From the IMG/VR virus record IMGVR_UViG_3300046558_000411, positions 1 to 23,850 of that record: a stretch of DNA of 23,850 nucleotides; one strand, written 5' to 3'. The notes under the pieces are model-generated. The model did not search any database, was not told where the DNA came from, and was given only the letters and a program-made list of their open reading frames with translations. The DNA is from a virus. Position numbers and translations under genes: made by a program. How positions within the stretch are numbered: position 1 is the stretch's first letter; each line of letters begins with the position of its first letter. Shown one piece after another: positions 11,912 to 22,983 of this stretch.

Positions 11912-11962
11912 TTACGAAGCCGCGAACTTCATCAGCTTACCACCGCCTCGTTTACGAGGCGG
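11912..11962 (-). other. Relic copy of the capsid 3' end plus hairpin across the capsid stop codon
   Basis: The sequence 11912-11940 matches the last 29 bases of the capsid gene (11952-11980) at 24 positions. Read on the minus strand it gives KLMKFAAS-stop next to the genuine KVMKFSAS-stop; differences are conservative or silent. Between them, CCGCCTCG (11943-11950) and CGAGGCGG (11955-11962) form a perfect 8-base hairpin with the TAA stop in its loop. It has no T-tract. Confidence 0.65.
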
Positions 11963-13067
11963 AGAACTTCATCACCTTAATCGCCTCGCTATTGGCCACG
12001 CCGCCGCCAATCCGCTTGACCGCATAGAAATGCACGAACGGCTTGTTGCTGAACGGATCGCGCAGGATGCTCGTCTCGCTGCGCTCGGCGATGACATAGC
12101 CCGCCTGAAAATTGCCGAAGGCGATCGACAGGCTGTTCGCGGCGATATCGGGCATGTCCTCGGCCTCGACCACCGGGTAGCCCAGCAAAGTCGCCGGCTG
12201 CCCCGCCGCCATGGACGGCTGCCACAGGAACGCGCCGTCGCTCGTCTTCATCTTGCGGATCACCGCCAGCGTCGCCGAATTCATGACGAAGCTCGCCCCC
12301 TGCCGGTATGGCGCACGCAGGCTCTGCACCAGATCGATCAGCCTGTCCTGCGGATTGGACGCGGCAAAGGCCCCCGCCGCCCCCGACGCCACATATTGCA
12401 GCGATCCGAAGGCCCGCACGCTGTCCGCCTCATTGGTGGTCGTATAGGTCAGGAAGCCCTTGGGCTTGCTGGTCCCATTGCCATTGACGAAGGCCGCGCC
12501 CTCCGCCGCCGCAAATTCGCGCGCAATCTCGCTCGCCAGCCAGCTTTCGACATCGAACTGCGCATCGTCCAGCATCGCCTGCGATGCCGCCGGATTGGCG
12601 AACAGTTCGCCCGAAGGCGGCACGATCTCGTTGAAGCTCGGCGTCCCCGTCTCGGCCCGCGCGCCCGTCTCGCTGGCCCAGCCCGACACGATCCCGCCCG
12701 ACGTCACCAGCTTGCGATAGCCCGCCGTCCCGGTCCGCACGACATTGGCGATCCCGCGGATCGGCGACACGCTCTTGAGCGTCGCGTCGATCAACTGGTC
12801 GATCTCCCGCGGCACCGCATAGCCCCCCGCCGCGCCACTGGCGCCCGAAAAGCTCTTCAGCTCGACCCCGGCTTCCAGCCCCTGCCGCAGATAGCGCTCC
12901 ACAAATTGCGCCCGCGCCGGATCGACGGCGCCACCCTTCACGCCATCCAAAGCCGGCCGCTGCTGCGCCAGCAAAGCCCCCTTCAGCGCCGCGACTTCCC
13001 CCGCCAGCCCCTCGATCCGCTCCCCCTGCGCCACCAGCTCCAGGCTCGCCTCCAACATATCCGTCAT
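11952..13067 (-). CDS. HK97-type phage major capsid protein (RcGTA g5 equivalent)
   Basis: 371 residues. The N-terminal ~60 are a coiled-coil delta/scaffold segment (RIEGLAGEVAALKGALLAQQ) to be removed by the prohead protease. The HK97 core follows: GGYAVPREIDQLIDATLKSV, IRGIANVVRTGT, VSGWASETGARAETGTPSF, IAREFAAAEGAAFVNGNGT, KPKGFLTY, FVMNSATLAVIRKMKTSDGA, LLGYPVVEAEDMPD and the end FSNKPFVHFYAVKRIGGGV. The ATG at 13067 follows GTGGAGACGGGC; longer upstream frames run through a terminator and repeat and are not used. A T7-tailed terminator lies just 13 bases upstream of the start codon, so transcription must begin in or read through that stretch. Confidence 0.95.
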   Translation of the reverse strand: MTDMLEASLELVAQGERIEGLAGEVAALKGALLAQQRPALDGVKGGAVDPARAQFVERYLRQGLEAGVELKSFSGASGAAGGYAVPREIDQLIDATLKSVSPIRGIANVVRTGTAGYRKLVTSGGIVSGWASETGARAETGTPSFNEIVPPSGELFANPAASQAMLDDAQFDVESWLASEIAREFAAAEGAAFVNGNGTSKPKGFLTYTTTNEADSVRAFGSLQYVASGAAGAFAASNPQDRLIDLVQSLRAPYRQGASFVMNSATLAVIRKMKTSDGAFLWQPSMAAGQPATLLGYPVVEAEDMPDIAANSLSIAFGNFQAGYVIAERSETSILRDPFSNKPFVHFYAVKRIGGGVANSEAIKVMKFSAS

Positions 13068-13079
13068 GCCCGTCTCCAC

Positions 13080-13106
13080 AAAAAAAGGCGGCCCAACCGG
13101 ACCGCC
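13080..13106 (-). terminator. Factor-independent terminator upstream of the capsid gene
   Basis: On the minus strand: GGCGGTCC-GGTT-GGGCCGCC (one mismatch) followed by seven Ts, ending 13 bases before the capsid ATG. No minus-strand gene lies directly upstream (DUF805 and PhyH are on plus), so it either blocks antisense transcripts or attenuates capsid expression. Confidence 0.7.
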
Positions 13107-13124
13107 CGAACAAAACCAAAAAAT

Positions 13125-13192
13125 CCTCGCCCCTTCAGGGGAGAGGATACGAAGTCTTGGCAGCTTGCTGCCTAGACGCAGTTGGAGAGGGG
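13125..13192. repeat. Palindromic repeat family A, copy 3
   Basis: CCTCGCCCC-TTCA-GGGGAGAGG, ATACGAAGTCTT, inner palindrome GGCAGC-TT-GCTGCC, TAGACGCAGTTGGAGAGGGG. It is nearly identical to copy 1 over ATACGAAG..CTTGGCAGCTTGCTGCCTAG. It lies between the divergent starts of the capsid and DUF805 genes, so this copy is in an upstream region rather than a 3' end. Confidence 0.85.
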
Positions 13193-13250
13193 CCAGCGCC
13201 CTTGCCTCCCGAAAACCGCTCATGCATCTATGAGGAAAGGGGTTTTTACC

Positions 13251-13724
13251 ATGAATCGTCACACGACCGCAGATGCAGAAGCCAATCTGATTCTTCGCGC
13301 AATTAGCGGAACAGCCAATTTCAAAGGCCGCTCACGCAGAAAGGAAATACTTCTCTACCAGATCATGGTCGCTCTGATCAGCGTGGTCCTTGGCTTCATC
13401 GGGATGGCCCTGTTACCTGCGGCAACAACGATGCGAATGATCAGCCTGCTCCAGATCGTTACGACCATTCCCCTTTTTGCGCTGATGGCCCGCCGCCTCC
13501 ACGATCAGAACCGTTCAGGATGGTGGGGGTTGATCCTACCTGCTGCAATCCTCCTGAAACTGATCGAAAACTGGAAGTTTCCGACTAGTCCGGGCAATAT
13601 AATTCATCTTCCTGCGCCTTGGATCGCAATCAATATCATATTTATCATCCTGCTTTTGACGTTCATAATGTGTCCCGGCACAAACGGCCCCAACCGCTAT
13701 GGCAAAGATCCCCGTACTGCTTGA
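13251..13724 (+). CDS. DUF805 family membrane protein
   Basis: 157 residues. Typical DUF805 features: GRSRRKEILLYQIM (26-39), ARRLHDQNRSGWWGL (80-94) and the terminal PGTNGPNRYGKDP (142-154), around four predicted membrane helices (about 38-57, 62-79, 90-104 and 122-140). The function of the family is unknown; it is an inner-membrane protein. The ATG at 13251 follows GAGGAAAGG. Base composition is lower in GC than the GTA genes. It is followed after 13 bases by the PhyH-family gene and likely shares its transcript. Together they interrupt the protease-capsid junction on the opposite strand, pointing to insertion. Confidence 0.88.
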   Translation: MNRHTTADAEANLILRAISGTANFKGRSRRKEILLYQIMVALISVVLGFIGMALLPAATTMRMISLLQIVTTIPLFALMARRLHDQNRSGWWGLILPAAILLKLIENWKFPTSPGNIIHLPAPWIAINIIFIILLLTFIMCPGTNGPNRYGKDPRTA

Positions 13725-13737
13725 GTGTTCGAGAAAA

Positions 13738-14409
13738 ATGTCCCTAACTCTCACCACCCACGGCGCAATGCACATCCCCGCAGCGCTGCCCGAACCCACG
13801 CTCGCCACCATCGAAACCACCCTCGCGACACTCCCAACCGATCGCGCCGGCCAACGCCTCGCCGCGCTACCGGCTCTTGCAGCGATGCTCAGCGCGGACG
13901 GCACAATCGGCCGCCACCCCGCCGCCCATCTGGGCGAGGCCGCAAAAGCCGTCCGCGCGATCTTCTTCGACAAGAGCGAAGCCACAAACTGGTCGCTCGG
14001 CTGGCATCAGGACCGCACCATCGCCGTGCAGCAGCGCGTCGACACGCCAGGCTTCGGCCCCTGGACGCTCAAGTCCGGCATCCAGCATGTCGCCCCGCCG
14101 CAATCCCTGCTCGACCAGATGCTCACCCTGCGCATCCATCTCGATCCAGTCGACGCAGACAATGCCCCGCTGCTGATCGCACCCGGCTCCCACCGCCATG
14201 GCCGCGTCCCCGAAACCGACGTCGCCGCCCTCGTCGCCGCCTGCGGCACCCATGCCTGCCTCGCCCGGCGCGGCGACATCTGGCTCTACGCCACCCCGAT
14301 CCTCCACGCCTCCGACGCCGCCACAAACCCCCGCCACCGCCGCGTCCTGCAACTCGACTATAGCGCCGACCCGCTACCGGCCGCGCTGCGATGGCTGGGC
14401 ATCACCTGA
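13738..14409 (+). CDS. Phytanoyl-CoA dioxygenase (PhyH) family protein
   Basis: 223 residues from the chosen ATG. It belongs to the Fe(II)/2-oxoglutarate oxygenases of the PhyH type: metal ligands His90-x-Asp92 in SLGWHQDR, distal His190 in TPILHASDA, and the 2-oxoglutarate-binding Arg in RHRRVLQLDYS (201-202). LLIAPGSHRHGRVPE is the typical loop between them. The substrate cannot be told from sequence; relatives hydroxylate small molecules or modify metabolites. An alternative ATG at 13699 lies inside the DUF805 end and lacks a ribosome-binding site; the ATG at 13738 has only a weak one, as expected for coupling to the gene 13 bases upstream. It converges with the 174-aa membrane protein gene. 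Confidence 0.88.
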   Translation: MSLTLTTHGAMHIPAALPEPTLATIETTLATLPTDRAGQRLAALPALAAMLSADGTIGRHPAAHLGEAAKAVRAIFFDKSEATNWSLGWHQDRTIAVQQRVDTPGFGPWTLKSGIQHVAPPQSLLDQMLTLRIHLDPVDADNAPLLIAPGSHRHGRVPETDVAALVAACGTHACLARRGDIWLYATPILHASDAATNPRHRRVLQLDYSADPLPAALRWLGIT

Positions 14410-14441
14410 AGAACCGTGGCGCGACACCACACGCTTTGCAT

Positions 14442-14966
14442 TCATCCGAAATAGAGGAACCAGGCCATCCTGTCCTTCGGCGAAACCAGGATCAGCCCCT
14501 CACCATGGTTTAGGATTTTATACCATCTACCGGGTCTGTTCCGCGCCATCCCATAGCGCTCAGTCAGTTTCAGTCGCCTCGCCTTTTCGGACGCGCAGGT
14601 GGTGCCATGATCCGCATAAAGCGCAATCCGCCGTCGGGCGGGGCCGACCAATGCATATTGCCCGTCTTCCAGCGGCAATGGCGTTCGATACCATCCCGCT
14701 GGCAGGTTCGACTTACCTGAAAATCGGGTAACGGTTGCGTCCGTGATGCGGTAGGCGCCAAAGCTACAGCCGTCACGCAGCCCGGAATTCTCATTGAAGG
14801 CGACTATGCTTTCCCACTCTACTTCCTTCGGCAGAGCGCTGCGAGGACTGTGCCATAACGTCCAGCCGCAAAAACTCAAAGGAAGGAGGATAGGTAAAAG
14901 CATAAGAAAAAGGCAACCACGCCACAGGATCGTGCCGACCGTAACGCCCTTTTCATCTACGCTCAT
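14442..14966 (-). CDS. Hypothetical membrane-anchored protein
   Basis: 174 residues, unrecognised. One membrane helix (about 12-33, TILWRGCLFLMLLPILLPLS) precedes a soluble domain of about 140 residues with GCSFGAYRITDATVTRFSG, LPLEDGQYALVGPARRRI and two cysteines (one in each of GCSFG and TTCASE). It is probably anchored in the inner membrane with the domain in the periplasm. The ATG at 14966 follows GGAGATGGT; an ATG seven codons upstream has no ribosome-binding site. GC is lower than in the flanking GTA genes. It sits alone between the prohead protease gene and the convergent PhyH gene, and looks like an insertion. Confidence 0.75.
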   Translation of the reverse strand: MSVDEKGVTVGTILWRGCLFLMLLPILLPLSFCGWTLWHSPRSALPKEVEWESIVAFNENSGLRDGCSFGAYRITDATVTRFSGKSNLPAGWYRTPLPLEDGQYALVGPARRRIALYADHGTTCASEKARRLKLTERYGMARNRPGRWYKILNHGEGLILVSPKDRMAWFLYFG

Positions 14967-15064
14967 ACCATCTCCATTCTTTATCATCGACTAATGAGGA
15001 AGTATGAAAGGATGATTGCCTTGATGACTTGTTTCCATCAATACGGCTGAATGCATGACGGCCC

Positions 15065-15640: not shown

Positions 15641-15949
15641 TCATCCCTTCACCAACCCGACAAGGCCGACCTTTACTGCAATCCCCAGCAGCAACAGCGC
15701 CATGCCGATCCGCACGATCCAGCCGATCACCGCCCCGCGCGCCGCCTTCTTCGCGTCGCGCCAGGCGGACAGCAATTCGCGCAATTCCCGCACATCGCCC
15801 TCCGCGCGCCGGTCCGCCAGCCCCAGCCGCTCCAGCGCCCGCCCCGCGCCCAGCTCGCTCGCCTCCTCGATCAGCGCGCGGATCGTCACCATATCCAGCA
15901 CCTGCCCGTCCGCCTGCGCGACCAGCCGCGCCAGCATGTCCTCTTTCAT
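15641..15949 (-). CDS. DUF6127-like GTA membrane protein (RcGTA g3.5 position)
   Basis: 102 residues. The N-terminal part is helical (MLARLVAQADGQVLDMVTIR, ALIEEASELGAGRALERLGL), followed by a charged amphipathic stretch (DVRELRELLSAWRDAKKAAR) and a single membrane helix near the C-terminus (about 74-100, AVIGWIVRIGMALLLLGIAV). This arrangement and its position between portal and prohead protease fit the DUF6127 family of alphaproteobacterial GTA clusters, whose role is not established. The ATG at 15949 follows AAGGAGCGGGCG, which fixes the start; the longer frame upstream is antisense to the 57-aa ORF. Confidence 0.8.
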   Translation of the reverse strand: MKEDMLARLVAQADGQVLDMVTIRALIEEASELGAGRALERLGLADRRAEGDVRELRELLSAWRDAKKAARGAVIGWIVRIGMALLLLGIAVKVGLVGLVKG

Positions 15950-15994
15950 CGCCCGCTCCTTCCCTTCCGTCCGCTCTGCCCCTATCTGCACGCC

Positions 15995-16168
15995 ATGAAG
16001 CGCACTCCCCGCAAAGTCCTGATCGTCCTTATCCTCGCCGCGATCGGCGCCCTCGCCTGGCATTTCCACCTGTTCCGCGCCGGCGATTGCCTGACGCAGG
16101 GCGGCACATGGAATTGGGAGGGCCATTTCTGCCGCCTCGATTCCCTCCCCGCCCGCGCCCCGGACTAA
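15995..16168 (+). CDS. Small membrane-anchored hypothetical protein (CL..GG.W....C motif)
   Basis: 57 residues on the plus strand. Basic start (MKRTPRKV), one membrane helix (8-22, VLIVLILAAIGALAW), then GDCLTQGGTWNWEGHFCRLD with two cysteines (32 and 46). Small alphaproteobacterial envelope proteins often show this C-L-x-x-G-G-x-[WF]...C pattern. The Shine-Dalgarno site is weak, so the start is based on the helix. It is opposite to, and fills the gap between, the portal and DUF6127-like genes. It is not a known GTA component. Confidence 0.6.
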   Translation: MKRTPRKVLIVLILAAIGALAWHFHLFRAGDCLTQGGTWNWEGHFCRLDSLPARAPD

Positions 16169-16171
16169 ATT

Positions 16172-16265
16172 TTCGCGCAGAGGCGCAAAGACCGCAGAGC
16201 CAAAAAAAGCCGCCACAGGCGGCAAAATCTCCTCTTCTCAGCGCCCTCTGCGCCCTCTGCGCGAA
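16172..16265. repeat. Palindromic repeat family B, copy 2 (with embedded terminator)
   Basis: Terminal arms TTCGCGCAGAG (16172-16182) and CTCTGCGCGAA (16255-16265) are an exact 11-base inverted repeat and extend imperfectly inward. The centre holds GCCGCC-ACA-GGCGGC. The right edge continues as CCCATTA into the portal stop codon, the same junction as at copy 3 with the M28 gene. Confidence 0.85.
16202..16223 (-). terminator. Factor-independent terminator of the portal gene
   Basis: Minus strand: GCCGCC-TGT-GGCGGC followed by seven Ts, 46 bases after the portal TAA. It lies inside repeat B copy 2. Confidence 0.85.
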
Positions 16266-16269
16266 CCCA

Positions 16270-17394
16270 TTATAATCCCAGCATCGCCCTCTTCTGGTCC
16301 CCCGACAGGAAGTCCACCGCCGCCACCCGCTCCCACAGCGCGGCGCGCTCATCCGCCAGCGCCGGCACCGCATCCAGATCGGGCTCGATCGCCACGCCCG
16401 GCCACCAGGGCTGCAACCCTTGTGACAGCCCCGCGCAAATCTTGCCCACCAGCGGCAAAATTGCCTGCCGCCACAGCGCCTTGTTCGCCTCCCGATAATT
16501 GGCGTAAGCATTGTCGCCCGGCAGCCCCATCAGCATCGGCGGCACCCCGAACGCCAGCGCAATCTCCCGCGCCGCCGCGCTCTTCAGCCCCACGAAATCC
16601 ATCTCCGCCGGGGTCAAACTCATCGCCTTCCAACTGAGGCCTCCCTCCAGCAGCATCGGCCGCCCCGCATTGGCCGCCCCCGCAAAGGCCGCCTCCATCT
16701 CGCGCTTCACCCGCTCGAACTGGTCGGGCGACAGCACCGATCCATCGCCCGGCTCATAGACCATCGCGCCCGACGGCCGCGCCGCATTGTCCAGCAGCGC
16801 CTTGTTCCACACGCTGGCCGCATTGTGGATCGCCACCGCGCCCGCCGCCGCGCCGACACAGCCCAGCCCATAATGATCATCCAGCGGATGCAGCGCCTTC
16901 AAATGCAGCAAACTGGTCCGCCCCGCGCCATCCTCCGGCGACAGTCGCGTCACGCTCTCCCCCACCCGATAGAGGTAAGCCGCCGGCCACCCCCGCGCAT
17001 CCGCCTCCACGCTGACCCGTTCCGGCCGCAGCGCAAACAGTTCGGCCGGCCGACCATCGGCCCCCGCCATCATCTGCACATAGCCATTGCCATGCAGCAG
17101 CAGATGACAGGCCAAAGTCTCCACCAGCCCCTGCCCCGCAGACGCCCTCCCGACCAGCGCCAGGACGGCCGCATCCTCCGCCACCCCGCGCACCTTGATC
17201 GCACAGGCGCCCGCGCCTTCGGACACCAGCCGCATCGCCCGCTGCGCCACCGGATTGCCCATCACCCCCGCGCGCAACTGAGCCTCATAGGATGCCGGCC
17301 ACTCCCCCAGCGCCACCGCGCCCGAACCCCAGGCACGCGCCAACACCGGCCGCGCATCCTGCGATGCGGCCGCTTTCGTCCCGAACCATTTCAT
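16270..17394 (-). CDS. HK97-type phage portal protein (RcGTA g3 equivalent)
   Basis: 374 residues. Motifs of the HK97 portal family in order: NPVAQRAMRLVSEGAGAC (47-64), LLLHGNGYVQMMAG (98-111), LFALRPERVSVEAD, LLHLKALHPLDDHYGLGCVG, IHNAASVWNKALLDNAARPS, MLLEGGLSWKAMSLTPAEMD, and AREIALAFGVPPMLMGLPGD with YREANKALWRQAILPL near the end. It forms the dodecameric ring for DNA entry and exit. The ATG at 17394 follows GGGGGCTTTAC. It stands alone: 4.2 kb of unrelated genes separate it from terminase, and terminators lie on both sides (16202-16223 and 17413-17440). Confidence 0.94.
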   Translation of the reverse strand: MKWFGTKAAASQDARPVLARAWGSGAVALGEWPASYEAQLRAGVMGNPVAQRAMRLVSEGAGACAIKVRGVAEDAAVLALVGRASAGQGLVETLACHLLLHGNGYVQMMAGADGRPAELFALRPERVSVEADARGWPAAYLYRVGESVTRLSPEDGAGRTSLLHLKALHPLDDHYGLGCVGAAAGAVAIHNAASVWNKALLDNAARPSGAMVYEPGDGSVLSPDQFERVKREMEAAFAGAANAGRPMLLEGGLSWKAMSLTPAEMDFVGLKSAAAREIALAFGVPPMLMGLPGDNAYANYREANKALWRQAILPLVGKICAGLSQGLQPWWPGVAIEPDLDAVPALADERAALWERVAAVDFLSGDQKRAMLGL

Positions 17395-17504: not shown

Positions 17505-18062
17505 TCACAATGCCTGCAATTGGTCCCGCATATCTATCGCTGTCTGAAGCGATAGAAACATGCCTGATCCTCGCCTATATCGTTCGAACCCCAGCCACCC
17601 ATAAAAGTCGGCAACGCCATCATTAATGGGGGTCAGGATCAACAGCGGCAGCCCGATCAGCTCGCCATATTCGGCAAAATCCAATATCACCCTGATGATC
17701 ATGGCCGATCCGATGCCTTGACGTTGGCGATCCTGCGCGACGGCAAGGTAAACCAGACTCAGGCATGGAAAATAATTGGAGTTACCGAAAAACGGTACAT
17801 AGGATATCCCGGGCAATAGCCGGGCTTCTTCTATAACTGTGGATAGGGCATAAAAGCCTACAGGATTTGTTTCCAAACCTGCATCATGCACGCAAGTAAC
17901 AATATGCTTGCGCCTCTCATGATCCCGCAACGATTTCGTGCGAAACCATGTATCAATTTCCGATATGCCGCAGCAAAAAGACAGAGTGCGCATATCCTTG
18001 CCGTGCCTTCGGAAAGCCAACGCGCTTTCCGGCACGCCGGACAGACCCGAATTACGGGGCAA
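17505..18062 (-). CDS. GNAT family N-acetyltransferase, possible toxin of a TA pair
   Basis: 185 residues from a TTG at 18062. CCGISEIDTWFRTKSLRDHE (30-49) corresponds to the F-x-C-G-x-x-x-L-D-x-W-L opening of the TacT/AtaT-type tRNA-acetylating toxins. LSLVYLAVAQDRQRQGIGSA (101-120) contains the acetyl-CoA-binding Q/R-x-x-G-x-G, and ADFYGWLGFERY (151-162) carries the conserved Tyr of these enzymes. The start overlaps the end of the 54-aa gene, which indicates coupling; GTG (18035) or ATG (17993) starts are possible but would leave less before the fold. Lower GC than the GTA genes suggests acquisition. A non-toxin acetyltransferase remains possible because the upstream gene is not a typical RHH antitoxin. 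Confidence 0.8.
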   Translation of the reverse strand: MPRNSGLSGVPESALAFRRHGKDMRTLSFCCGISEIDTWFRTKSLRDHERRKHIVTCVHDAGLETNPVGFYALSTVIEEARLLPGISYVPFFGNSNYFPCLSLVYLAVAQDRQRQGIGSAMIIRVILDFAEYGELIGLPLLILTPINDGVADFYGWLGFERYRRGSGMFLSLQTAIDMRDQLQAL

Positions 18063-18216
18063 CCTTAGCCTTATAAATCGCCATCAGCTTGCGCATGCCC
18101 GGCGTCAAGCCGCCGCGCTTGGCATGTGCCTTTGCGCCGACTTTGAACGCCAGCGCCGTACCTTTTTCGGACAGAGGCCTGGGCGCCACAAAACAATCTT
18201 TTCTAATGATCGCCAT
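18052..18216 (-). CDS. 54-residue basic protein coupled to GNAT; candidate antitoxin or partner
   Basis: 54 residues, unrecognised. The ATG at 18216 follows a near-perfect AAAGGAGGTGCGAC, one of the best ribosome-binding sites in the window. It is lysine/arginine rich (KGTALAFKVGAKAHAKRGGL, then TPGMRKLMAIYKAKVAP) and has no membrane helix or signal. Its TAA lies inside the GNAT gene start region. The order small gene then GNAT with overlap is that of toxin-antitoxin pairs, but a ribbon-helix-helix (DUF1778) pattern is absent. The basic composition could suit nucleic-acid or ribosome binding; that is inference. Confidence 0.7.
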   Translation of the reverse strand: MAIIRKDCFVAPRPLSEKGTALAFKVGAKAHAKRGGLTPGMRKLMAIYKAKVAP

Positions 18217-18338
18217 GTCGCACCTCCTTTCCACTATCATCACGTCGATAAAAACTGGCCGCTCAACATGCGCAGAATAACCATTTCGCCAGTGGACGAC
18301 AAGCGCCCCCGCAACACAGGAGCGCCCACCGCCAACCC

Positions 18339-18677
18339 TCACCGATTTCGCGCCAGCACCCGATCGCACACCGAATTGGTGCCCTCGCTCTTGCCGATCA
18401 CGCGCCCGGCCACTGCGCCCGCAGCGCCCGCCAGCAACGTCTCGCCCAGACCGCCGCCCGCCAGCAGGCCCACGCCAGCACCACCGGCCGCGCCGATCAC
18501 AGTGCCCTTGTCGCGCCCCTGCTTGCCCTTGAGCAGGCAGTATCGCACATCGTCCCGGTCGCGCGGCGCAGCGCGGGCCACCCGCGCGCGATCCTTGCTG
18601 TTCAGACTGGCGGCCATCACCGGCGTCGCGATCACACTCACGCCAACAGCCACCGCCATCAGCTTCACCATCTTCAT
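18339..18677 (-). CDS. Secreted glycine-zipper protein
   Basis: 112 residues. Residues 1-23 form a signal peptide (VKLMAVAVGVSVIATPVMAA). The middle has GTVIGAAGGAGVGLLAGGGL and LLAGAAGAVAGRVIGKSEG (58-97), a G-x-x-x-G-rich double helix typical of glycine-zipper outer-membrane or periplasmic proteins. Two cysteines (Cys47 and Cys103) may pair. Members of this loose group are common in sphingomonads, without a firm function. The Shine-Dalgarno AGGAG lies in a hairpin (18686-18701). It is located in the island between terminase and portal and is not a virion gene. Confidence 0.8.
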   Translation of the reverse strand: MKMVKLMAVAVGVSVIATPVMAASLNSKDRARVARAAPRDRDDVRYCLLKGKQGRDKGTVIGAAGGAGVGLLAGGGLGETLLAGAAGAVAGRVIGKSEGTNSVCDRVLARNR

Positions 18678-19660: not shown

Positions 19661-21424
19661 CTACTCGTCGGAAAAACCGACCTTGAACGCCTTCGTTATG
19701 AAAATTCCGGCACTGAATTTATCCGGGTTCTTGCCTCCCATTTGATCGGAGAAGCGCAATCCCGCATGAATGCCGCCCTTGTCATCGGTAATAAACAGAA
19801 CCGGGACATCATAGGCAAACTGGCCGCTATTTACGTCCAGCGTCAATTTGGGGGCAATGGCCAGCCCCCCTGCAAACGGCACCCCGGCAAAATGAACCTT
19901 GCTCATCAGGCCCAGCCGATAGAATGTGCTTTCCTCCGGAGCCGCGATGTTCACCTTTGAACAGGCGATCACGTTACCGGGAAGACAGCGTATCTGATCC
20001 TCGCTACCCTTGACATATTTATATTCCTGGCCGATCTCGACAAGAGCGGCGCCATAAAGGCGTGGCACTTGCGGCGCTAGACTGTCCCACTGTCCGGGCT
20101 TGGCAGACGACCGATAGATTCCGAACTTGCCGATGTGCGCATTTGCGCTCCAGACCAGCTTTGCGGTTTCATGCTCCGCATAGCCAAATGGTTTCGTCGC
20201 ATCCAAATCCTCTGCCGCCGTGCTTCCGAACCGGCTATAGGTAAAGGCTTGCCATCCCAGCTTGCCGTCAATGCCCCAGTCCCAATCCGGCGCTGCGTCG
20301 GAAGCCCAAAGGGCCTTATCATAAATATTCTTAATCGCCTTGTCTGGATTGTTGGCAGCCCAGCGTCCCAACGCCTCCCCGGAACATAATGCCGCCTTTT
20401 GCTCTGCATCGGGTTTTGTTTCTTTGCCATCCTGCTCGGCAATGCATTTTTTTACCAACTCGGCCTGCCCCCTCGCCAGGGAACTGCGAATAGCATCGGG
20501 TGAGCGAGGCCTGTAACCGATACGTGTCAGGCCCAGGCTAAACTGGACATTATCTTCAAAGCCCTTGCCCTCTCCGCCTGAATAGAGCGCGCCAAAACTG
20601 TCCGCCGCCTTCGCTATGATGCCTCCCGACAAGGTATAGGAATAGCCCTTGTCGCCCGTTACGGACACGCCTTCATCCGAACACGTCTTCTGCTTTTCTT
20701 TGCAGCGCAAATACTTCCCGGCCCATGAACGCGCAAGTTTGATCCCAATCTCGGTCTTGTCGTCCTGAGCCGAGAGGCTGACACCGCCCAGGCCGGAAGC
20801 ATCGCTGCGATCAAACAGATATGAACTGGCCGCATTCGCCGCCCTCTCTACCAACGCCCATCCGACCGGCCGGGGGGCCTTGATAGATTCATCATTCTCT
20901 TTCGGTTCGGGGCCGTAAAAACTGTTAGGCGCCTTCAAAAGCGTAGTAAGTTTGGTGCCAAATAGCGTGCAATCGGAAACAACATCGTTCCCTGCCGGCT
21001 TGCCTTCGCCTTTATCAGCGGCACAAGCGCTCGGGTCCGCCACCGCCTGCTGTTCTGCAACTGGCCTCGCCTGATCCAGACGAGCAAGTATCTGCTGGAA
21101 ATTGTTCAAGGCAATGGCCAGCGCCTGAGATTTCCCCTCAAGAGCACGGACCTCATCGGCCAGTTGCGACTGCATTGCGGCAAGATTGACCGTCGACGCA
21201 TCCTGGCGGCCAAGCACTTCCATGAGTTGCCGCCTGACCCCAAGCTCACGATTTATCTGCTCGGCCTCCCCTTCCTTCTGCTTGATCTGTTGTTCGATAA
21301 AATCTCTCTGTTCCTGCCAGCCCCCGGCTTGCACAGGCACCCCGCTCGTTTCCTGCGCAGCAATAGCCTGAATTGGGCAGGCAAAATAAGCAGCTACCAA
21401 GATCATGGAAAAATTTGATTTCAT
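19661..21424 (-). CDS. Large secreted protein with N-terminal coiled coil and beta-rich C-terminal part, unknown family
   Basis: 587 residues from the ATG at 21424, which follows GGGGGG at good distance and starts a signal peptide (NFSMILVAAYFACPIQAIAA). A longer frame from 21517 has no ribosome-binding site and would bury the signal. Residues about 30-110 are coiled coil (IEQQIKQKEGEAEQINRELG, QSQLADEVRALEGKSQALAI). The rest is beta-rich with repeated aromatic strands (LGWQAFTYSRFG, STFYRLGLMSKVHFAG, SGQFAYDVPVLFI), ending in FSAGIFITKAFKVGFSDE. That suggests an outer-membrane or periplasmic beta structure, possibly trimeric through the coiled coil. It contains cysteine pairs (CKEKQKTC; CLPGNVIACSK). 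No family is recognised. GC is clearly lower than in the flanking terminase gene. Confidence 0.8.
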   Translation of the reverse strand: MKSNFSMILVAAYFACPIQAIAAQETSGVPVQAGGWQEQRDFIEQQIKQKEGEAEQINRELGVRRQLMEVLGRQDASTVNLAAMQSQLADEVRALEGKSQALAIALNNFQQILARLDQARPVAEQQAVADPSACAADKGEGKPAGNDVVSDCTLFGTKLTTLLKAPNSFYGPEPKENDESIKAPRPVGWALVERAANAASSYLFDRSDASGLGGVSLSAQDDKTEIGIKLARSWAGKYLRCKEKQKTCSDEGVSVTGDKGYSYTLSGGIIAKAADSFGALYSGGEGKGFEDNVQFSLGLTRIGYRPRSPDAIRSSLARGQAELVKKCIAEQDGKETKPDAEQKAALCSGEALGRWAANNPDKAIKNIYDKALWASDAAPDWDWGIDGKLGWQAFTYSRFGSTAAEDLDATKPFGYAEHETAKLVWSANAHIGKFGIYRSSAKPGQWDSLAPQVPRLYGAALVEIGQEYKYVKGSEDQIRCLPGNVIACSKVNIAAPEESTFYRLGLMSKVHFAGVPFAGGLAIAPKLTLDVNSGQFAYDVPVLFITDDKGGIHAGLRFSDQMGGKNPDKFSAGIFITKAFKVGFSDE

Positions 21425-21486
21425 ATCGCCCCCCGACGAATCCATAAAATGGTCAAAATCATCAGATTTCACCATCAGTAGAGGCA

Positions 21487-21517
21487 ATATTACATAACGA
21501 TATTTAAAAGTGAACAA
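21487..21517 (-). promoter_or_regulatory. Candidate sigma-70-type promoter of the secreted-protein gene
   Basis: An AT-rich pocket in otherwise GC-rich DNA. Minus strand TTGTTC (21512-21517) and TGTAAT (21489-21494) are spaced by 17 bases; TAATAT overlaps at 21487-21492. The -35 match is only half. It lies 60-95 bases upstream of the chosen start. Confidence 0.35.
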
Positions 21518-21648: not shown

Positions 21649-22962
21649 TCACATCCCCCGAACCCGCGCCTCCCCCACCTTCCCCAGCATCAGCTCACTC
21701 ATCGCCCACACCAGCGCATCCGCCCGGTCCGGCGATCGCCCCGGCCCCACATAGCCGCCCCCCGCCAGCAATCCGCACATCTGGTCCTCCAGTTCGGGGA
21801 AGGCCCCGCGATGCGCCACGCGCCCGGCCTCGTACAAAGCCGCCACCGGCTCCGCCCGTGCCGCTTTCCCCCGGCTCGCATGGACGAGCCGCACCGGCAT
21901 CTTCTCTTCCGCCGCACGCAGCACGCTTTCCACCATCTGCCCGCCATTATTCGCCTCGGCCACGACCCGGTCGGCGCCATGCACCATCGCCGCCGCCGCG
22001 ACCGCGCGCGCCCAGCCTTCGGGCCGCATCCCCGCCACGCTCGCGTCCGCGATCACATAGCCGCGCCCGTCCCCGCCGATCCCGGCCACCACGATCCCGC
22101 ACGCATCCCCGCCTGCACTCGCCGGCGGATCGACCGCCACCACCACACGCGCCAGCATACCCGGCACATGGCGCACCCGGCACCGCTCGATCAGATCGCG
22201 CGTCCACAGCGCGCCCTCCACCTCCTCGATCAGTTCGCCGTCCAGTTCCTGCCGCCCCAGCCGCGTACCGCCATAGCTGGCCGCCATCGCCGCCACGAAG
22301 CCCGGCGCCAGATTGGCTGCATTGTCCGCCGTCCGCCCCCGCGTCACCACGACATCATCCCCCTCCCGCGCGACCAGCCCCCGCACCAGAGGCACCGGCC
22401 GCGGCGTCGTCGTCGCCAGCACGCGCGGCGCCCTGCCAAGTCGCAATCCCATCATCAGATTATGCCAGGCCGCCTCGCCGCCCGCCCATTTGGCGATCTC
22501 GTCGGCCCAGCCATGGCTGAACTGCGGCCCACGCAAACTCTCCGGCTCGGCCGCGCCGAACAGCATCGCCGTCGCGCCATTGGGCCAGCGCAGCCGCCGC
22601 AGCGCCGGGGCATAGTGTGGCCGCGCCCACCATGGCGCGATATTCAGCAGCCCGCTCTCCCCCTCCACCATCACGCTGCGCGCCTCGCCCAGCGTCGCAC
22701 CGACCAGCGCGATCCGCGCCGCCGGATCGGCCTCGGCAATGGCCCGCACCCATTCCGCCCCGGCCCGCGTCTTGCCGAAACCGCGCCCCGCCAGCATCAG
22801 CCAGATGCGCCAGTCCCCCGCCGGCGCCAATTGCTCCGGCCGCGCGACAAAGCGCCACTCCCGCTCCAGCCGCTCCGCCGCCGCCGGCGTCAGCCCCGCG
22901 CGCAACCGCGCCCACAGCGCCGCATCTTCCCCACCCAGCCATTCCCGATCCGAAACCTCCAT
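21649..22962 (-). CDS. Terminase large subunit / GTA DNA-packaging protein (RcGTA g2 equivalent)
   Basis: 437 residues. ATPase: Walker A LMLAGRGFGKTRAGAEW with Lys64; Walker B/catalytic pair HGWADEIAKW (Asp154, Glu155); the TTTPRP motif (coupling) at about 184-189. Nuclease: VVVAVDPPAS (Asp278), VVAEANNGGQMVE (Glu336) and SPDRADALVWA (Asp415), a full RNase-H-like acid triad. It packages DNA into the prohead; in RcGTA this is random host DNA. The ATG at 22962 follows GGGGGAGGGCG; a GTG seven codons upstream sits in a terminator T-tract and was rejected. No small terminase gene is seen upstream. The next gene in the GTA order, portal, is 4.2 kb away. Confidence 0.95.
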   Translation of the reverse strand: MEVSDREWLGGEDAALWARLRAGLTPAAAERLEREWRFVARPEQLAPAGDWRIWLMLAGRGFGKTRAGAEWVRAIAEADPAARIALVGATLGEARSVMVEGESGLLNIAPWWARPHYAPALRRLRWPNGATAMLFGAAEPESLRGPQFSHGWADEIAKWAGGEAAWHNLMMGLRLGRAPRVLATTTPRPVPLVRGLVAREGDDVVVTRGRTADNAANLAPGFVAAMAASYGGTRLGRQELDGELIEEVEGALWTRDLIERCRVRHVPGMLARVVVAVDPPASAGGDACGIVVAGIGGDGRGYVIADASVAGMRPEGWARAVAAAAMVHGADRVVAEANNGGQMVESVLRAAEEKMPVRLVHASRGKAARAEPVAALYEAGRVAHRGAFPELEDQMCGLLAGGGYVGPGRSPDRADALVWAMSELMLGKVGEARVRGM

Positions 22963-22983
22963 CGCCCTCCCCCGAAACGGCAC

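What the first reader, a model, noticed from the sequence alone, without database searches (positions are those of the whole stretch)
17505..18216. GNAT gene overlapping a 54-aa basic gene without an RHH domain: candidate new toxin-antitoxin type
The GNAT has the C-G-x-x-x-I-D-x-W start and Q/R-x-x-G-x-G of tRNA-acetylating toxins. Its partner has an almost ideal ribosome-binding site, overlaps the toxin start, and is too short and too basic for the usual DUF1778 antitoxin. Low GC and position inside a GTA head region suggest a mobile or stabilising module.
Basis: partly seen in the sequence, partly recalled or inferred. Interest (0 to 1): 0.6.

Follow-up and report, generated by a model that had tools for sequence, protein, structure and literature searches.

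The report
Toxin-like acetyltransferase with unknown small partner
Inside a virus-like gene-transfer cluster of a sphingomonad bacterium sits a two-gene module, a probable protein-synthesis-blocking acetyltransferase toxin with a tiny basic partner that always travels with it but lacks the DNA-binding domain that antitoxins of this toxin family usually carry, so it is probably a new kind of antitoxin for a known kind of toxin.

Summary
Confirmed and extended. Window 17505-18216 (-) encodes a GNAT whose AlphaFold model matches, in the first 38 PDB hits, only tRNA-acetylating toxins (AtaT, KacT, TacT, ItaT, GmvT). It is preceded by a 54-aa gene with a strong ribosome-binding site, net charge +10 and purifying selection (dN/dS 0.04-0.13). 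The small protein matches no Pfam, NCBIfam, PHROG or PADLOC family, no ribbon-helix-helix profile and no PDB fold. All nine distinct close GNAT relatives, in gene transfer agents, prophage-like regions and other chromosomal loci, have a homologous small gene upstream. In 389 Sphingobium and Sphingomonas genomes the two strong matches fall in the same seven. About 70 more distant GNATs have DUF1778/RHH antitoxins instead. The GNAT branches outside the RHH clade, the position from which Bikmetov et al. (2022) reported TA-like loci with unidentified short partners. The pair is an insertion of roughly 0.8 kb between two GTA genes and is far more diverged than its neighbours. A sister genome has a different GNAT plus small gene at that site, and another GTA carries a classical DUF1778-GNAT pair. 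Best reading: a type II-like toxin-antitoxin module with a new RHH-less antitoxin family. Toxicity and neutralisation are untested. New variant of a known kind.

The parts
17505..18062 (-). GNAT acetyltransferase, putative tRNA-acetylating toxin; 185 aa from TTG 18062, or 176 aa from GTG 18035 (the start that aligns with L004/L085)
   Evidence: AlphaFold model pTM 0.75, top 38 PDB fold hits all GNAT TA toxins
18052..18216 (-). 54-aa basic small protein, candidate RHH-less antitoxin (family 'SM7' in this report)
   Evidence: no known family; AF2: two helices 17-34 and 39-52, no strand
18222..18230 (-). ribosome-binding site AAAGGAGGT of the small gene, core conserved in L003, L004, L085
17601..17603 (-). 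codon of Tyr154 (FY..LGF), aligned with the catalytic tyrosine of AtaT (Y144) and KacT (Y145); invariant in the eight SM7 GNATs aligned
   Evidence: AtaT Y144 role from PMC7595197
17709..17726 (-). Q-x-x-G-x-G acetyl-CoA loop; the second Gly (G118) is invariant in SM7 GNATs, the first (G116) only in the GTA-site copies
16270..17394 (-). GTA portal protein, right flank of the insertion site
   Evidence: PF04860, 4.7e-69
18339..18677 (-). glycine-zipper-like small protein gene, left flank of the insertion site; in about half of the compared GTAs it lies 86-161 bp from portal

Best explanation
The pair is a type II-like toxin-antitoxin module with a non-canonical antitoxin. The GNAT (toxin) acetylates the amino group of aminoacyl-tRNA and stops translation (inferred from family and fold). 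The 54-aa basic two-helix protein is translated first from a strong RBS, binds the GNAT and blocks it, doing without a DNA-binding half the job that the C-terminal tail of DUF1778/RHH antitoxins does (inferred). The GNAT is translated from weak start codons (never ATG in this clade) at or near the stop codon of the small gene, so coupling should keep antitoxin in excess (shown: codons and positions; inferred: effect). With no RHH, transcriptional autoregulation of the usual kind is probably absent. The module is exchanged as a cassette, here inserted between two GTA genes, where it may stabilise the cluster (inferred).
For: Fold: top 38 PDB hits are AtaT, AtaT2, KacT, TacT1-3, GmvT and 7byy, E 3.9e-10 to 2e-7, then a roughly 100-fold gap to other GNATs; sequence agrees. 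Catalytic Tyr invariant. Strict pairing: all nine distinct close GNATs have a homologous small gene upstream; strong hits of both in the same 7 of 389 genomes. Controls: nearly all of about 75 more distant GNAT loci have RHH antitoxins. Identities of the two proteins covary across loci (r=0.93). Purifying selection. A sister GTA has another GNAT plus small pair at the same site; another GTA has a bona fide DUF1778-GNAT pair. L085 keeps an intact small gene beside a GNAT with an in-frame TAA, as expected if the small gene is harmless alone. SM7 and the non-RHH partners of three further GNATs (SM10) look distantly related.
Against: No toxicity, binding or rescue data. The clade lies outside the DUF1778 'true TA clade', where a changed function cannot be excluded (PMC9177977). 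The first Gly of the acetyl-CoA loop is not conserved in five of eight SM7 GNATs. L003/L086 and L087 have no ATG/GTG/TTG start upstream of the core, so those copies might be defective. The small protein is unusually basic for something expected to mask a tRNA-binding enzyme. The SM7 profile was built from genes found upstream of GNATs, so the pairing count is not fully independent.
Confidence: 0.66

Rival explanations
1. The GNAT is not a growth inhibitor but a modifying enzyme, and the small basic protein is its activator or its dedicated lysine- or N-terminus-acetylated substrate.
For: The clade lies outside the DUF1778 clade; PMC9177977 raises changed physiological function as an alternative. 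The small protein is lysine-rich. The acetyl-CoA loop is partly degenerate.
Against: The fold is nearest to the toxins, not to RimI, NAT or lysine acetyltransferases. Antitoxin-first order, weak toxin start, exchange among mobile contexts, and replacement at the same GTA site by another toxin-family GNAT pair all fit a TA module better.
Confidence: 0.2
2. Reverse roles: the small basic helical peptide is the toxic agent and the GNAT is the enzyme that detoxifies it by acetylation (as type VII enzyme antitoxins or self-immunity acetyltransferases do).
For: Small, strongly basic (+8 to +10), helical. Enzymes that neutralise peptides by acetylation exist (general knowledge).
Against: L085 has an intact small gene with a truncated GNAT. 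The small gene has the strong RBS and the GNAT the weak start, the wrong way round. The GNAT fold is that of toxins. No export or processing genes seen beside it.
Confidence: 0.08
3. The small ORF is a leader or coupling peptide for the GNAT, its sequence unimportant.
For: It sits immediately upstream and seems coupled to a weakly started gene.
Against: dN/dS 0.04-0.13, recognisable homology down to 20-30% identity across contexts, changing reading-frame relation between the two genes, covariation with the GNAT.
Confidence: 0.05

Closest known systems
GNAT-RHH (DUF1778/TacA1) type II TA: TacAT, AtaRT, KacAT, ItaRT, GmvAT
   Same: Toxin fold, catalytic Tyr, CG..IDxW start, small gene upstream of and close to or overlapping the toxin gene
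   Different: Partner is 54-69 aa, not about 90-100 aa, with no RHH and no DUF1778 match; GNAT branches outside the RHH-associated clade
TA-like GNAT loci outside the 'true TA clade' (Bikmetov et al. 2022, PMC9177977)
   Same: Same description: a short divergent ORF without DNA-binding domain precedes a toxin-like GNAT; partner function unknown
   Different: That paper does not define families; here one lineage's short ORF is a conserved, strictly paired family found in GTA, prophage-like and other contexts
VcaA-VcaT (DUF4065-GNAT)
   Same: GNAT toxin whose DUF1778 antitoxin was replaced by another protein
   Different: DUF4065 antitoxin, toxin inside the true TA clade; P0001 has no DUF4065 match
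PacTA (GNAT-Xre) of Pseudomonas aeruginosa, PMC9561280
   Same: GNAT toxin with a non-RHH antitoxin
   Different: Antitoxin has an HTH-Xre motif and PacT acts on Fur; here no HTH
gp26-gp27 of Listeria phage A118 and its equivalent in Latilactobacillus phage TMW 1.1397 P1
   Same: 58-67-aa ORF just upstream of a related GNAT in a temperate phage
   Different: Small proteins not detectably related to SM7; function unreported as far as found

Membership tests
Type II GNAT-RHH (DUF1778) TA | GNAT toxin of the TacT/AtaT/KacT kind | tested here: met
   phmmer 7ak7 1.7e-7, AtaT and KacT 1e-3; Foldseek top 38 hits all GNAT toxins
Type II GNAT-RHH (DUF1778) TA | catalytic tyrosine in FYxxxGF | tested here: met
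   Tyr154, invariant in SM7
Type II GNAT-RHH (DUF1778) TA | adjacent upstream antitoxin gene, conserved pair | tested here: met
Type II GNAT-RHH (DUF1778) TA | antitoxin with RHH/DUF1778 domain | tested here: not met
   no Pfam/NCBIfam hit, RHH profile finds none of the nine, hhalign aligns only 17 C-terminal columns, no PDB fold hit; 16 of 16 controls hit PF08681
Type II GNAT-RHH (DUF1778) TA | toxin lies within the DUF1778-associated clade | tested here: not met
   RHH-associated clade excludes SM7, support 99/98
Type II TA (any) | toxin inhibits growth, antitoxin protein binds and neutralises it | not testable with these tools
   needs expression and co-purification
GNAT-DUF4065 (VcaAT) or GNAT-Xre (PacTA) | DUF4065 or Xre/HTH antitoxin | tested here: not met
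   no Pfam match for P0001 up to E 1
Programmed-frameshift fusion of the two ORFs | constant frame relation between the ORFs | tested here: not met
   frame offset differs between loci (+1, 0, -1)

The most novel reading that the evidence does not exclude
RHH-less short proteins are an independent antitoxin superfamily (SM7, SM10 and possibly the L060-type protein) for GNAT toxins outside, and once inside, the DUF1778 clade, and sphingomonad gene transfer agents repeatedly acquire and swap such GNAT toxin-antitoxin cassettes as addiction or control modules that keep the GTA cluster in the genome.
Probability: 0.35. Interest if true: 0.75.

Novelty: new variant of a known kind. Interest (0 to 1): 0.58.

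Why it matters
It gives a concrete, conserved candidate for the 'yet unidentified antitoxins' of GNAT loci outside the DUF1778 clade, an open question stated in 2022, and makes it directly testable with a 54-aa protein. If true, GNAT toxins can be controlled by very small proteins without any DNA-binding domain, so neutralisation and autoregulation are separable. It also suggests that gene transfer agents, whose persistence in genomes is debated, carry toxin-antitoxin cassettes at fixed sites.

Tried and rejected
Artefact or spurious ORF: rejected by dN/dS and by homologues in other contexts. Programmed frameshift fusion: rejected, frame relation varies. First searches with the GNAT alone found nothing in viral contigs or phages because the peptide patterns were too strict; the small protein found the relatives. 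Shared operator palindromes upstream of the small gene: none common to the loci. PADLOC: no match. PHROGs gives only a generic phage acetyltransferase family, phrog_1758. Literature search for GNAT TA modules in GTAs: nothing relevant found.

Full report
WHAT IS THERE. The window is a 23,850-base IMG/VR record holding a gene transfer agent (GTA) head-tail cluster of the sphingomonad kind on the minus strand: portal PF04860 at 16270-17394, DUF6127 at 15641-16225, plus terminase at 21649-22983 and capsid at 11952-13262 assigned by reading the translations and by matches to homologous GTA loci. Between portal and a glycine-zipper-like gene lie two minus-strand ORFs: a GNAT (17505-18062) and, just upstream of it, a 54-aa ORF (18052-18216) with RBS AAAGGAGGT. 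GC drops to about 0.50 there. The overlap is real only if the TTG at 18062 is used; the GTG at 18035 aligns with the start of the L004 and L085 copies and gives no overlap.

THE GNAT IS A TOXIN-FAMILY GNAT. phmmer against the PDB gives 7ak7 (TacT2, 1.7e-7), 7f37 (AtaT2, 2e-7), AtaT and KacT (names). An AlphaFold model from four sequences (pLDDT 75, pTM 0.75) matches, in its first 38 Foldseek hits, only AtaT, AtaT2, KacT, TacT1-3, GmvT and 7byy ('bacterial toxin'), E 3.9e-10 to 2e-7; the next GNATs start at 1.7e-5. Tyr154 in FYGWLGF aligns with the catalytic Tyr of AtaT (Y144; PMC7595197) and is invariant in the eight aligned relatives. The acetyl-CoA loop is canonical in the window but only its second glycine is invariant in the clade.

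THE SMALL PROTEIN. It matches nothing in Pfam, NCBIfam, PHROGs or PADLOC. AlphaFold gives two helices (17-34, 39-52), no strand, moderate confidence (pLDDT 69), and no PDB fold hit below E 8. Relatives were found by searching with the small protein itself and by reading upstream of related GNATs. Family 'SM7' now has nine distinct members: window; Sphingobium YR768 (L003/L086); L004; L085; Sphingomonas IC-56 (L087); G403 (L122), G482 (L123), G727 (L133), G688 (L134). They share K/R-x-T-A-x-A-F-x-x-G-x-K and a C-terminal TPxhRKhhxhY-like stretch, and all are strongly basic (+8 to +10). dN/dS is 0.04-0.13, so it is a real gene under purifying selection.

STRICT PAIRING, WITH CONTROLS. In 94 Sphingobium and 295 Sphingomonas genomes the strong GNAT hits and the strong small-protein hits fall in exactly the same seven genomes (G001, G003, G403, G482; G002, G727, G688), adjacent in the same order each time. 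The small-protein profile was built from genes upstream of GNATs, so the informative part is that no solitary copies turned up. Pairwise identities of the two proteins correlate (r = 0.93 over eight loci; partly driven by the close trio). As a control, nearly all of about 75 more distant GNAT loci from sphingomonads, other Alphaproteobacteria and plasmids carry an RHH antitoxin by an independent profile, at least its C-terminal part; all 16 sequences of that profile match PF08681 TacA1/DUF1778. The RHH profile finds nothing in any SM7 locus (best E 5).

A SECOND, DISTANTLY RELATED PARTNER FAMILY. Three GNATs (Methylobacterium plasmid L002, G986 L165, G953 L167) have 70-74-aa non-RHH partners ('SM10'). 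The SM7 profile scores each SM10 protein above all but 0-1 of about 2,600 scored shuffles, and profile-profile comparison gives P = 0.0015 over the C-terminal part. Both families align, weakly, only with the C-terminal toxin-binding tail of DUF1778 antitoxins (P = 0.02 and 0.005). Two GNAT partners (L169, L181) match the DUF1778 profile only in that tail, L181 also in Pfam, below the cut-off. This suggests, but does not prove, that SM7 is a free-standing neutralising segment.

PHYLOGENY AND LITERATURE. In a maximum-likelihood tree rooted on RimI-like GNATs, all RHH-associated GNATs fall in one clade (99/98), SM7 GNATs form another (100/99), and SM10 GNATs lie outside the RHH clade. Bikmetov et al. 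2022 (PMC9177977) describe the same geometry: DUF1778-GNATs form one 'true TA clade'; [quoted passage not shown] The window pair is such a locus, so the architecture is not unheard of. What is new is a defined partner family with strict linkage. Known non-RHH partners of GNAT toxins are DUF4065 (VcaA, same paper) and Xre (PacA, PMC9561280); SM7 is neither.

GTA CASSETTE. In 23 of 46 GTA loci compared, the glycine-zipper gene lies 86-161 bp from portal; in the window and its kin (L003/L086, L004, L085) that gap is about 0.9-1 kb and holds the pair, next to a palindromic stretch also present in loci without the pair. Flanking genes differ from L003 and L004 by dS 0.12-0.21 (portal, glycine zipper, nitroreductase), but the small gene by 0.85-0.98 and the GNAT by 1.5-4 (the higher values are saturated). 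The pair is thus exchanged independently of its neighbours. In a sister genome (L060 = G472, portal 98% identical) the same site holds a different GNAT (best PDB hit AtaT 8.6e-10) preceded by an unrelated 60-aa ORF with a strong RBS; that second pair recurs, both genes conserved, in the GTA of G481 beside the capsid gene (L208). A further GTA (L063) carries a classical DUF1778 antitoxin plus GNAT between protease and capsid. A bona fide TA pair of the same toxin family in the same niche supports reading the window pair as a TA module. Elsewhere SM7 lies beside a phage integrase (G403), phage recombination genes (G482) or an IS21-like transposase and a TIR gene (G688).

MECHANISM. Shown: gene order, strong RBS on the small gene, weak or absent start on the GNAT (no ATG in any of ten SM7 loci, against 38 of 73 RHH-type loci; L003/L086 and L087 have no ATG/GTG/TTG upstream of the core, so only rare starts such as ATT, ATA or ACG, or a truncated start). 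Inferred: coupling keeps antitoxin in excess; the two-helix protein binds and masks the GNAT; a free GNAT acetylates aminoacyl-tRNA. Supporting the assignment of roles: L085 keeps the small gene intact while its GNAT has an in-frame TAA (a MAG, so a sequencing error is possible). A frameshift fusion is excluded because the frame relation differs between loci. No toxicity, binding or rescue data exist for this clade, so the functional claim stays at about two in three.

Noticed in passing
L060:513-1240 (same GTA site as the window pair) and L208 minus strand 1492-2221: A second GNAT plus 60-aa non-RHH partner family (partner 54%, GNAT 63% identical between the two loci), both copies inside GTA clusters at different positions; the GNAT's best PDB hits are AtaT and KacT, and it falls inside the RHH clade on a long branch.
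   Followed up: partly
L063:6515-7332: Classical DUF1778 antitoxin plus GNAT toxin between prohead protease and major capsid gene of a GTA cluster; GTAs seem to be recurrent homes of GNAT toxin-antitoxin modules.
   Followed up: partly
L211 (Listeria phage A118 gp26-gp27) and L212 (Latilactobacillus phage): Temperate phages of Firmicutes also carry a 58-67-aa ORF directly upstream of a related GNAT, next to the endolysin gene; in A118 the anti-CRISPR genes follow. The small proteins are unrelated to SM7.
   Followed up: partly
L085:5001-5531: GNAT copy with a single in-frame TAA while the small gene is intact and conserved.
   Followed up: partly
L003:4852-4917: A 33-bp perfect inverted repeat with no spacer upstream of the small gene in Sphingobium YR768; not present in the window.
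   Followed up: no
window 19661-21517: 618-aa protein of unknown family, lower GC, between terminase and nitroreductase genes; 99.8% identical at DNA level in L004 although the nearby terminase differs by dS 0.07 and nitroreductase by 0.13, so probably exchanged recently.
   Followed up: no
window 13182-14987: Low-GC cargo (DUF805, PhyH-like, a 181-aa unknown) between capsid and protease, the same slot that holds GNAT modules in L063 and L208.
   Followed up: no
L169, L181 (upstream partners of distant GNATs): Partners that match the DUF1778 antitoxin profile only in the C-terminal toxin-binding tail, with no recognisable RHH half: possible intermediates.
   Followed up: partly
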